Shown here: one piece after another, positions 56 through 1,177 of the stretch | Layout of the letters: every line of letters starts with the position of its first letter | Numbering within the stretch: the stretch's first letter is position 1 | Source: an uncultured Elusimicrobia bacterium | Lineage (GTDB): Bacteria > Elusimicrobiota > Elusimicrobia > Elusimicrobiales > Elusimicrobiaceae | Length of the DNA stretch: 64,000 bases | Assembly: GCA_945913025.1 (NCBI GenBank) | Contig: CAMECJ010000001.1 | Location: forward strand, 1 to 64,000 | Reading direction: 5' to 3' | The notes under the pieces: model-generated | Database searches by the model: none | Told to the model about the DNA's origin: nothing | Seen by the model: the letters and a program-made list of their open reading frames with translations, nothing else | Translations under genes and position numbers: made by a program

Positions 56-1177
56 ATTGTCGTTTCCTTGTTGAAAGAATAGACTAAATCTTTACCGTCC
101 GTACCTTTGCGGAATGCTACAATTTCAAACTGTTCGGGGCAGTATTTGTCCAAAAAACTGATGGGTACGCCCATTACGCCTTCGTAATCGGAGGGAATAG
201 CGTCCGTAAAAGGGACTTCTATAGCGTCGTAATTATCGTATTTTTGGTAGCCCTTTTCTTTAATTTCTTTATGGCGGCTGAATTTAAGATTTTCGGCCAT
301 TGTCATCAGTTTTAGCGGTTGGTGGCGTTTGCCGTGGTCCAAATTGGTAAACCAAATAGCTTGCGATCTGGCAAATAGTTGATTATTCACCATTCGGTAA
401 GCACTACCTGATTTTTTTTCTGATTTCAATTCTGTTTCATATTCTTTGGGTATATTAAAGAGTAAATCCATACTCATAGGAGTTTTACCTACCCATAGTT
501 GATTTTGCTGTATTAATTTAAAAGTTTCTTTGTACGTGACGGCATTTTTATTGGCGATAATGACAAATTTTTTATCCGCTTCCACAATCCACGCCAAAAA
601 CTCCCGAAACAGGGAAAACGGAGGATTGGTAATGATAAAATCGGCTTCGTTGCGCAGGGCTTTTACTTCGGGGCTTCTAAAGTCGCCGTCGCCTTTTAGA
701 TAGTCCCATTGTAAGTCGTCAATGTCAATTTTACCGCTTTTGTTGGAGTCTTTATCTAAAATGAAAATTTTGCCTTTCACGGCGGTTTTTGCCTTGTCAA
801 AGTGGGGGGACTCCGTTTCAAACAAAGAGGGTTGGTACGGAAATTTTATATTTTTACTTTCCGCCGCGTAACTGGTGCTGATTAATTTTTTAAGCCCGAA
901 ACGCTCAAAATTTTGGGCAAAGTAACGGGTAAAGTTGCTCCATTCGGGGTCGTCGCACGGAAGGAGGATGGTTTTACCGCGGAAAACATCGGGGTTAAAA
1001 TCCAAATAGGCTTGGATTTCTTTTTCTATATCGTGGTATTGGGTGTAAAATTCGTCGTTCTTGGCCTTTTTTGCTTTTGTTAAGTTTTTATTCAGGCCCG
1101 AACGGTGAACGTCTGAACGGCGTTCGGCGTTCGGCGTTCGGCGTTCGGCGTTCGGCGTTCTTCAGATTATGAGGCAT
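1..1177 (-). CDS. EcoRI-type adenine-specific DNA methyltransferase, frameshifted (phase-off) and incomplete at its 3' end
   Basis: Translation of the minus strand gives a continuous frame of about 350 residues containing LLPCDDPEWSNF, the catalytic adenine-methyltransferase motif NPPF (coding bases near 620-631) within DFIITNPPFSLF, and YRMVNNQLFARSQAIW. This layout is typical of the EcoRI modification methylase family (N6-adenine, SAM-dependent). The start is well supported: AGGAG lies 7 bases before an ATG at 1177-1175. Six codons later come six copies of a 7-base repeat. Counting codons, this ATG frame ends at TAA (1090-1088), while the methyltransferase frame is one base away and has no ATG, GTG or TTG until far inside the domain. 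As assembled the gene should be off. Five or eight repeat copies would restore the frame. The 3' end runs into a tetranucleotide tract and off the window. No cognate endonuclease is visible in the window. Confidence 0.88.
1118..1159. repeat. Heptanucleotide repeat, six copies, directly after the methyltransferase start codon
   Basis: Six exact tandem copies of CGGCGTT on the plus strand (AACGCCG on the coding strand). It starts six codons after the ATG at 1177. Seven bases is one more than a multiple of three, so each gain or loss shifts the frame. Confidence 0.97.

What the first reader, a model, noticed from the sequence alone, without database searches (positions are those of the whole stretch)
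1118..1177. Heptanucleotide repeat places an EcoRI-type methyltransferase in an OFF frame
A clear AGGAG and ATG (1177) are followed after six codons by six exact 7-base repeats. Codon counting shows this frame stops at 1090-1088 while the methyltransferase frame is offset by one base and has no start of its own. Five or eight copies would turn it on. This is the standard architecture of phase-variable genes, and phase-variable methyltransferases elsewhere (for example modA in Haemophilus and Neisseria) control phasevarions. I know of no described case in this phylum or in the EcoRI-like family.
Basis: partly seen in the sequence, partly recalled or inferred. Interest (0 to 1): 0.92.

Follow-up and report, generated by a model that had tools for sequence, protein, structure and literature searches.

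The report
Two-switch, three-ended DNA methyltransferase gene
A gut bacterium's DNA-marking enzyme gene appears to carry two slippery DNA repeats, one near its start that can turn it on or off and one near its end that selects one of three different protein endings, so a cell line could change what its DNA-defence system recognises by gaining or losing repeat copies.

Summary
In detail: six exact GAACGCC copies lie between ATG 1177 and an EcoRI-family adenine methyltransferase (PF13651, 401 bits). The gene is in frame only with 5 or 8 copies and has no other standard start. A related species has 2 copies, and the enzyme core is under purifying selection.

The window begins inside a second repeat, (CAGA)n, in the same gene; contig 2 of the genome starts in the same repeat. 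After it all three reading frames stay open, and each ends in a different methyltransferase C-terminus with the family's terminal strand motif. I found this at 14 loci with five repeat units (none a multiple of three): 11 have three usable endings, 3 have two. None of 148 family members without the repeat does. Each ending is conserved only in its own frame. Two Saccharibacteria, 89% identical over 2.7 kb, differ by 8 bp in the repeat and so have different endings.

The repeat sits in one of two hypervariable, specificity-like segments. The partner GmrSD/HNH nuclease has no such segment. Best reading: N-terminal ON/OFF switch plus three-way C-terminal specificity switch. Methylation changes are untested. 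Closest precedent: H. pylori Type IIG JHP1272.

The parts
1185..1190 (-). Shine-Dalgarno-like AAGGAG, 7 bases before the ATG
   Evidence: read directly; identical in relative L005
1175..1177 (-). ATG start of the leader that carries the heptanucleotide array
   Evidence: AGG at the same place in L005
1119..1160 (-). switch 1: (GAACGCC)6, N-terminal ON/OFF tract (ON with 5 or 8 copies)
   Evidence: 2 copies in L005
1088..1177 (-). short OFF-frame ORF (29 codons, stop TAA 1090-1088) read with six copies
1..1095 (-). EcoRI-family adenine methyltransferase frame, cut by the contig end inside switch 2
   Evidence: PF13651, 401 bits, residues 4-354; PADLOC MTase_II; core pN/pS 0.10 and 0.06 against L005
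355..489 (-). hypervariable region 1 (specificity-like), between LWVG and WFTN
   Evidence: family profile; unrelated sequence in L005 between conserved flanks
1..120 (-). 5' part of hypervariable region 2 (VAFRKGTDGKDLVYSF...), in which switch 2 lies
1..55 (-). switch 2: (CAGA)n tract at the contig edge; continues on contig 2 of the same genome (L140 = G000:C2:1-8000, tract at about 1-54), followed there by three alternative C-termini (frame stops at about L140:103, 197 and 270) and the GmrSD/HNH nuclease gene (L140:269-1429)
   Evidence: adjacency of C1 and C2 supported by L005, whose single contig spans both

Best explanation
The locus is a restriction-modification operon whose EcoRI-family methyltransferase is under two independent repeat switches. 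Switch 1 is the heptanucleotide tract after the ATG: one of three frames reads into the enzyme (ON; 5 or 8 copies) and two give peptides of about 30 residues (OFF; the assembly has 6). Switch 2 is the (CAGA)n tract within the C-terminal hypervariable segment. Its length decides which of three tandem C-terminal cassettes, each in a different frame, finishes the protein: C1 ...VVQPYFRILVRRI, C2 ...EFRHPAANGERAYVNGERKYARILILN..., or C3 ...STAIPGMIKNAEGKINGRITYARITIRKRKQL. Repeat slippage during replication would therefore give a population of OFF cells and cells with three forms of the enzyme. The exchanged segment behaves like part of the target-recognition region, and the partner GmrSD/HNH nuclease has no variable segment of its own, so it most likely takes its site specificity from the methyltransferase or its marks. 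Changing the end would then change both methylation and restriction without self-cutting. Shown by sequence: both tracts, the frame arithmetic, three open conserved endings, repeat-length difference between relatives, purifying selection. Inferred: slippage within a population, activity of each form, change of recognition sequence, and dependence of the nuclease on the methyltransferase.
For: Switch 1; 2 copies in L005 against 6 here; core pN/pS 0.10 and 0.06 between the two species, so the product is used. Switch 2: (CAGA)n at both contig ends, three endings on contig 2. Same three endings after other units in G034 (AG)27, G127 (AG/GA)n, L086 (GAACA)7 and G639 (GA)11; related or different sets in L015, L031, L073, G562, G636, G472 (AAGC)n; two endings in L193, L197 and L107 (A)9. 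Count: 11 of 14 loci with the terminal motif in all three frames, 3 of 14 in two; 0 of 148 distinct C-termini without the repeat in any alternative frame; 0 of 28,000 codon-order shuffles in two or more frames. Each cassette is conserved in its own frame only: pN/pS 0.20, 0.06, 0.06, against 0.8-5.5 in the other frames. L031 and L073 are 88.8% identical over 2.7 kb; the only indel between the start and end of the coding region is 8 bp in the GA tract, giving ending C1 in one and C2 in the other. Cassettes resemble the sole C-terminus of ordinary family members, e.g. L031 C2 is 76% identical to L064. Specificity: two hypervariable segments (identity 0.20 and 0.14 where the core is 0.74); nuclease identity never below 0.53 in any 23-residue window over 482 pairs, and correlating with the core (r 0.67) more than with the variable segments (0.20, 0.31). 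Models: ending C1 of L015 gives a confident last strand 341-346; in L086 with C3 the linker is disordered but the last strand 417-421 is again about pLDDT 90.
Against: No reads, strains, methylomes or protein data. Only one genome of the species, and its switch 2 tract is broken between contigs, so the present ending is unknown. In L005 the ATG is AGG and the C-terminus is frameshifted, which could mean loss of the gene there. C2 and C3 endings follow a long out-of-frame linker that is predicted disordered, so some forms might be inactive. No structure of the family exists in the PDB by sequence or fold, so the role of the variable segments in DNA recognition is inferred from variability alone. 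The cassette counts treat related loci as separate cases.
Confidence: 0.68

Rival explanations
1. Plain ON/OFF phase variation at both tracts: only one C-terminal ending gives an active enzyme, and the other frames are OFF states that happen to be long.
For: L193, L197 and L107 have one frame that is truncated without the motif; ON/OFF is the usual outcome of such tracts.
Against: All three endings carry the family's terminal strand motif at 11 loci, against 0 of 148 controls, and C1, C2 and C3 are each under purifying selection in separate frames; a useless frame would not be conserved.
Confidence: 0.15
2. The C-terminal switch changes something other than sequence specificity: stability, dimerisation, contact with the nuclease, or translation of the nuclease gene. 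The stop of C3 overlaps the nuclease start (ATGA at L140:269-272), while C1 and C2 stop about 165 and 70 bases earlier, so the phase could set how much nuclease is made.
For: C3 stop overlaps the nuclease ATG in G000, and also in G127, L031 and L073 (sequences); cassettes are short.
Against: The switched segment is the most variable part of the protein across the family while the nuclease is uniform, which is the pattern of a recognition segment; control of translation alone would not need three conserved endings.
Confidence: 0.25
3. The window's gene is a decaying remnant: out of frame at the start, with repeats that are assembly or replication noise.
For: OFF frame in the assembly; L005 lost the ATG and has a frameshifted end.
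Against: Core pN/pS 0.06-0.10 between the two species; exact repeats in several independent assemblies with different units; no other disruption in the window's gene.
Confidence: 0.07
4. The methyltransferase is made from a start downstream of the heptamer tract, so switch 1 does not control it.
For: Family members usually start about where the conserved region begins here (MANxNL...), just after the tract.
Against: No ATG, GTG or TTG exists there in the window; the only candidate, CTG 1095, is CTA in L005. The good SD and ATG lie before the tract.
Confidence: 0.1

Closest known systems
Helicobacter pylori Type IIG systems JHP1272 (Hpy99XIV) and HP1353-HP1354 (PMC3936762)
   Same: Two slippery tracts in one gene: the first switches the enzyme ON/OFF, the second adds or removes a C-terminal segment and changes the recognition sequence (shown there by SMRT sequencing).
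   Different: Single-chain Type IIG enzyme, homopolymer tracts, presence or absence of one extra domain. Here an EcoRI-family methyltransferase with a separate GmrSD/HNH nuclease, tracts of 2-7 bases (one locus with a homopolymer), and two or three tandem alternative endings in different frames.
C-terminal phase variation, Helicobacter canadensis and Neisseria gonorrhoeae (PMC2823697, PMC5320596)
   Same: Repeat near the 3' end switches the C-terminal residues between the three reading frames.
   Different: Described there mostly as homopolymer tracts with short unrelated tails; no DNA methyltransferase is in their C-terminal lists, and frame-by-frame conservation was not shown.
NgoAV Type I HsdS poly-G switch, N. 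gonorrhoeae (PMC9577141)
   Same: A repeat tract changes the specificity of a restriction-modification system (GCAN8TGC to GCAN7STCA).
   Different: Type I S subunit, truncated against fused form, two states.
modA-type phase-variable Type III methyltransferases (Haemophilus, Neisseria)
   Same: Tandem repeat in the 5' coding part gives ON/OFF switching of a methyltransferase; works like switch 1.
   Different: Different enzyme family, no 3' switch; regulon control (phasevarion) is shown there and untested here.
EcoRI restriction-modification system
   Same: Same methyltransferase family, PF13651.
   Different: Partner nuclease here is GmrSD_N + HNH, not an EcoRI-type endonuclease.

Membership tests
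EcoRI-family adenine methyltransferase (PF13651) | Full-length profile match and catalytic NPPF motif | tested here: met
   401 bits, profile 1-326 of 345; TNPPF invariant in 61 aligned members
Classical EcoRI-type Type II system | Partner endonuclease of the R.EcoRI family with its own site recognition | tested here: not met
   Adjacent gene is GmrSD_N + HNH (PADLOC REase_II) and shows no specificity-like variable segment
Translational (ON/OFF) phase variation by simple repeats | Repeat with unit not a multiple of three in the 5' coding part, frame-dependent expression | tested here: met
Translational (ON/OFF) phase variation by simple repeats | Repeat number varies between cells or strains | tested here: inconclusive
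   6 copies here, 2 in a related species; no second genome or reads of the same species
C-terminal phase variation | Repeat near the 3' end, different C-termini by frame | tested here: met
   length difference with different ending in L031 and L073
Specificity-switching restriction-modification system | Alternative forms methylate different sequences | not testable with these tools
   needs methylome data; supported only by hypervariability of the switched segment
Phasevarion | Switching changes expression of a set of genes through methylation | not testable with these tools
   no expression or methylation data
Type IIG (JHP1272-like) | Nuclease and methyltransferase in one chain | tested here: not met
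   separate ORFs at L140:1-272 and 269-1429

The most novel reading that the evidence does not exclude
A widespread class of mobile Type II-like systems keeps two or three alternative target-recognition ends of one methyltransferase in tandem, each in a different reading frame, and chooses among them by repeat slippage; the GmrSD/HNH nuclease has no recognition segment and follows the methyltransferase, so both protection and restriction change together without recombination. In the window's species an independent heptanucleotide switch adds an OFF state, giving four states.
Probability: 0.45. Interest if true: 0.9.

Novelty: new variant of a known kind. Interest (0 to 1): 0.77.

Why it matters
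Known specificity switching of restriction systems works mainly by recombination of hsdS genes, and a 2026 review lists only limited ON/OFF representation for Type II (PMC13076061). Here a short repeat would choose between three pre-made, conserved enzyme ends packed into overlapping frames, in uncultured gut lineages (Elusimicrobiota, Saccharibacteria, Gastranaerophilales) and in contigs of viral collections. If the ends differ in recognition site, this is a compact multi-state epigenetic and anti-phage switch. It also predicts that gene callers and assemblies will mis-annotate such genes, because contigs break in the repeat. It makes a clear question testable: does a GmrSD/HNH nuclease with no recognition segment of its own follow the methyltransferase?

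Tried and rejected
NCBIfam gave no family and PDB sequence and fold searches gave no relative, so the position of the variable segments on DNA could not be placed. I considered the Alysiella crassa heptamer array (L025) a second N-terminal case, but there the repeat frame does not run into the methyltransferase and lies before its ATG. Plasmid and phage homologues L212-L218 carry no such repeat. Hits of QTDR repeats in other Elusimicrobiota (L160-L167) are low-complexity matches to other genes or intergenic tracts. A search of viral contigs with cassettes alone returned only the locus already known. A cruder random-frame control gave 2.7% motif hits per frame, because the loci are rich in true methyltransferase ends; the family control and codon shuffles are used instead. 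Promoter scan near the gene gave no minus-strand sigma-70 match. Literature searches for EcoRI-family phase variation or three-frame methyltransferase switching found none; the library lacks most subscription papers.

Full report
Observation. On the minus strand the window holds AAGGAG (1190-1185), ATG (1177) and six exact GAACGCC copies (1160-1119). Translation shows the ATG frame ending at TAA 1090-1088 and the enzyme frame one base away, with no ATG, GTG or TTG of its own before the conserved part. Of copy numbers 3 to 10, only 5 and 8 join the ATG to the enzyme. The array is unique in the 1.76 Mb assembly. The enzyme is an EcoRI-family adenine methyltransferase (PF13651, 401 bits; PADLOC MTase_II).

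Is switch 1 a working switch? A related species (L005, about 88% identical DNA, same gene order) has 2 copies at the same place, which is the ON frame, but its ATG is AGG. The enzyme core differs between the two mostly at synonymous sites (pN/pS 0.10 over 197 codons and 0.06 over 78 codons), so the protein has been used since the split. No other start exists in either. I take ON/OFF control as likely; variation within the species is not shown. L005 itself, with start lost and end frameshifted, may be inactive.

The second tract. The window starts at a contig end, inside (CAGA)13.8 in the 3' part of the same gene. Contig 2 of the same genome starts with the same repeat, followed by methyltransferase endings and a GmrSD_N + HNH nuclease gene. 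In L005 one contig spans both sides, so the two contigs are neighbours. After the tract all three frames are open and end, one after another, with VVQPYFRILVRRI, then EFRHPAANGERAYVNGERKYARILILNRNPGND, then STAIPGMIKNAEGKINGRITYARITIRKRKQL. The repeat itself reads QTDR in every frame.

Other loci. The same arrangement occurs with other units: G034 (AG)27 and G127 in the same genus, L086 (GAACA)7, G639 (GA)11, all with the same three endings; L015, G636, L031, L073, G562 and G472 (AAGC) with related or different sets; L193, L197 and L107 (A9) with two endings. Unit lengths are 1, 2, 4 and 5, never a multiple of three. Some extra endings repeat the sequence GVMGVPISFLDKY.P.QF before their variable part (L031, L073, L197, G562, G472), which suggests they came from duplicated 3' ends of other alleles; L031 ending 2 is 76% identical to the only end of the Bacteroidaceae enzyme L064.

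Tests. (a) Terminal motif [YF]xR[IVL]..: in all three frames at 11 loci and in two at 3, against 0 of 148 distinct C-termini without the repeat and 0 of 28,000 codon-order shuffles. (b) Among G000, G034, G127 and L086 each ending is conserved only in its own frame: pN/pS 0.20, 0.06 and 0.06, against 0.8 to 5.5 in the other frames; variable columns fall on third positions, 10 of 17, 17 of 24 and 24 of 30. Pairs are not independent, but the contrast between frames is internal. (c) L031 and L073 are 88.8% identical over 2.7 kb and the only coding indel is +8 bp, four GA units, in the tract; the first reads into ending 1, the second into ending 2. Across loci the assembled phases include endings 1, 2, 3 and, in L197, a truncated form.

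What the switched part is. The family has two hypervariable segments, between LWLG and WFTN and between QFEI and the last strand. In pairs with core identity above 0.7 they are 0.20 and 0.14 identical. The tract lies in the second. The window and L005 have unrelated sequence in the first between conserved flanks. This is the pattern of target-recognition segments. The AlphaFold model of L015 with ending 1 is confident (pLDDT 89.7) and has the motif as its last strand. In L086 with ending 3 the linker from the out-of-frame passage is disordered, yet the last strand is again confident. No solved relative exists, so contact with DNA is inference.

The partner. In 37 paired nucleases of the same class no stretch is hypervariable. 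Over 482 pairs its identity averages 0.69, is never below 0.53 in a 23-residue window, and follows the methyltransferase core (r 0.67) rather than the variable segments (0.20 and 0.31). A nuclease with its own site would be expected to vary with the methyltransferase. I infer that it takes specificity from the methyltransferase or from its marks. This also removes the problem that a changed methyltransferase would leave the chromosome open to its own nuclease. A side possibility: ending 3 stops on the nuclease start (ATGA), so the phase might also affect nuclease translation.

Comparison. Switching the C-terminus by a 3' repeat is a described class, and H. pylori JHP1272 has one tract for ON/OFF and a second for a C-terminal specificity change, demonstrated by SMRT sequencing. 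NgoAV changes specificity through a poly-G tract in hsdS. The logic is therefore known. New, as far as the searched library shows, are the enzyme family with its GmrSD/HNH partner, the two or three pre-made conserved endings in separate frames, and the spread over several phyla. I found no report of it, with the limit that most subscription journals are absent.

Verdict. Repeat-selected alternative endings: about 0.9 likely. N-terminal ON/OFF: about 0.75. That the endings change the recognition site: about 0.6. Phasevarion effects: untested.

Noticed in passing
L161 (G214:C16) 1201-1697: A Type I specificity (HsdS, PF01420) reading frame in another Elusimicrobiota genome runs straight into (ACAG)29 at a contig end, a likely repeat-switched Type I system.
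   Followed up: partly
L025 1-56 (Alysiella crassa): (AACACGC)8 lies about 55 bases before the ATG of an EcoRI-type methyltransferase; the contig also ends in the repeat. Possible promoter-type or upstream switch.
   Followed up: partly
L160-L167: Several Elusimicrobiota genomes carry long (CAGA)/(TGTC) tracts of 11-29 copies in other places, often at contig ends.
   Followed up: no
L005 240-340 and 1210-1300: In the related species the start ATG is AGG, the heptamer has two copies, and the C-terminus is frameshifted near CCCACACACGC: either an inactive copy or another phase.
   Followed up: partly
L213 2038-3453 (Helicobacter phage Pt11509_1): EcoRI-type methyltransferase split into two ORFs next to an EcoRI-type endonuclease, without a repeat.
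   Followed up: no
L140 269-272: Stop of ending 3 overlaps the start of the GmrSD/HNH gene (ATGA), also in G127, L031 and L073; the other endings stop earlier, so translation of the nuclease may depend on the phase.
   Followed up: no
L193 817-876: A (CTAACGCTGCGG)5 array just upstream of the phage-borne methyltransferase, in an upstream ORF; the unit is a multiple of three.
   Followed up: no
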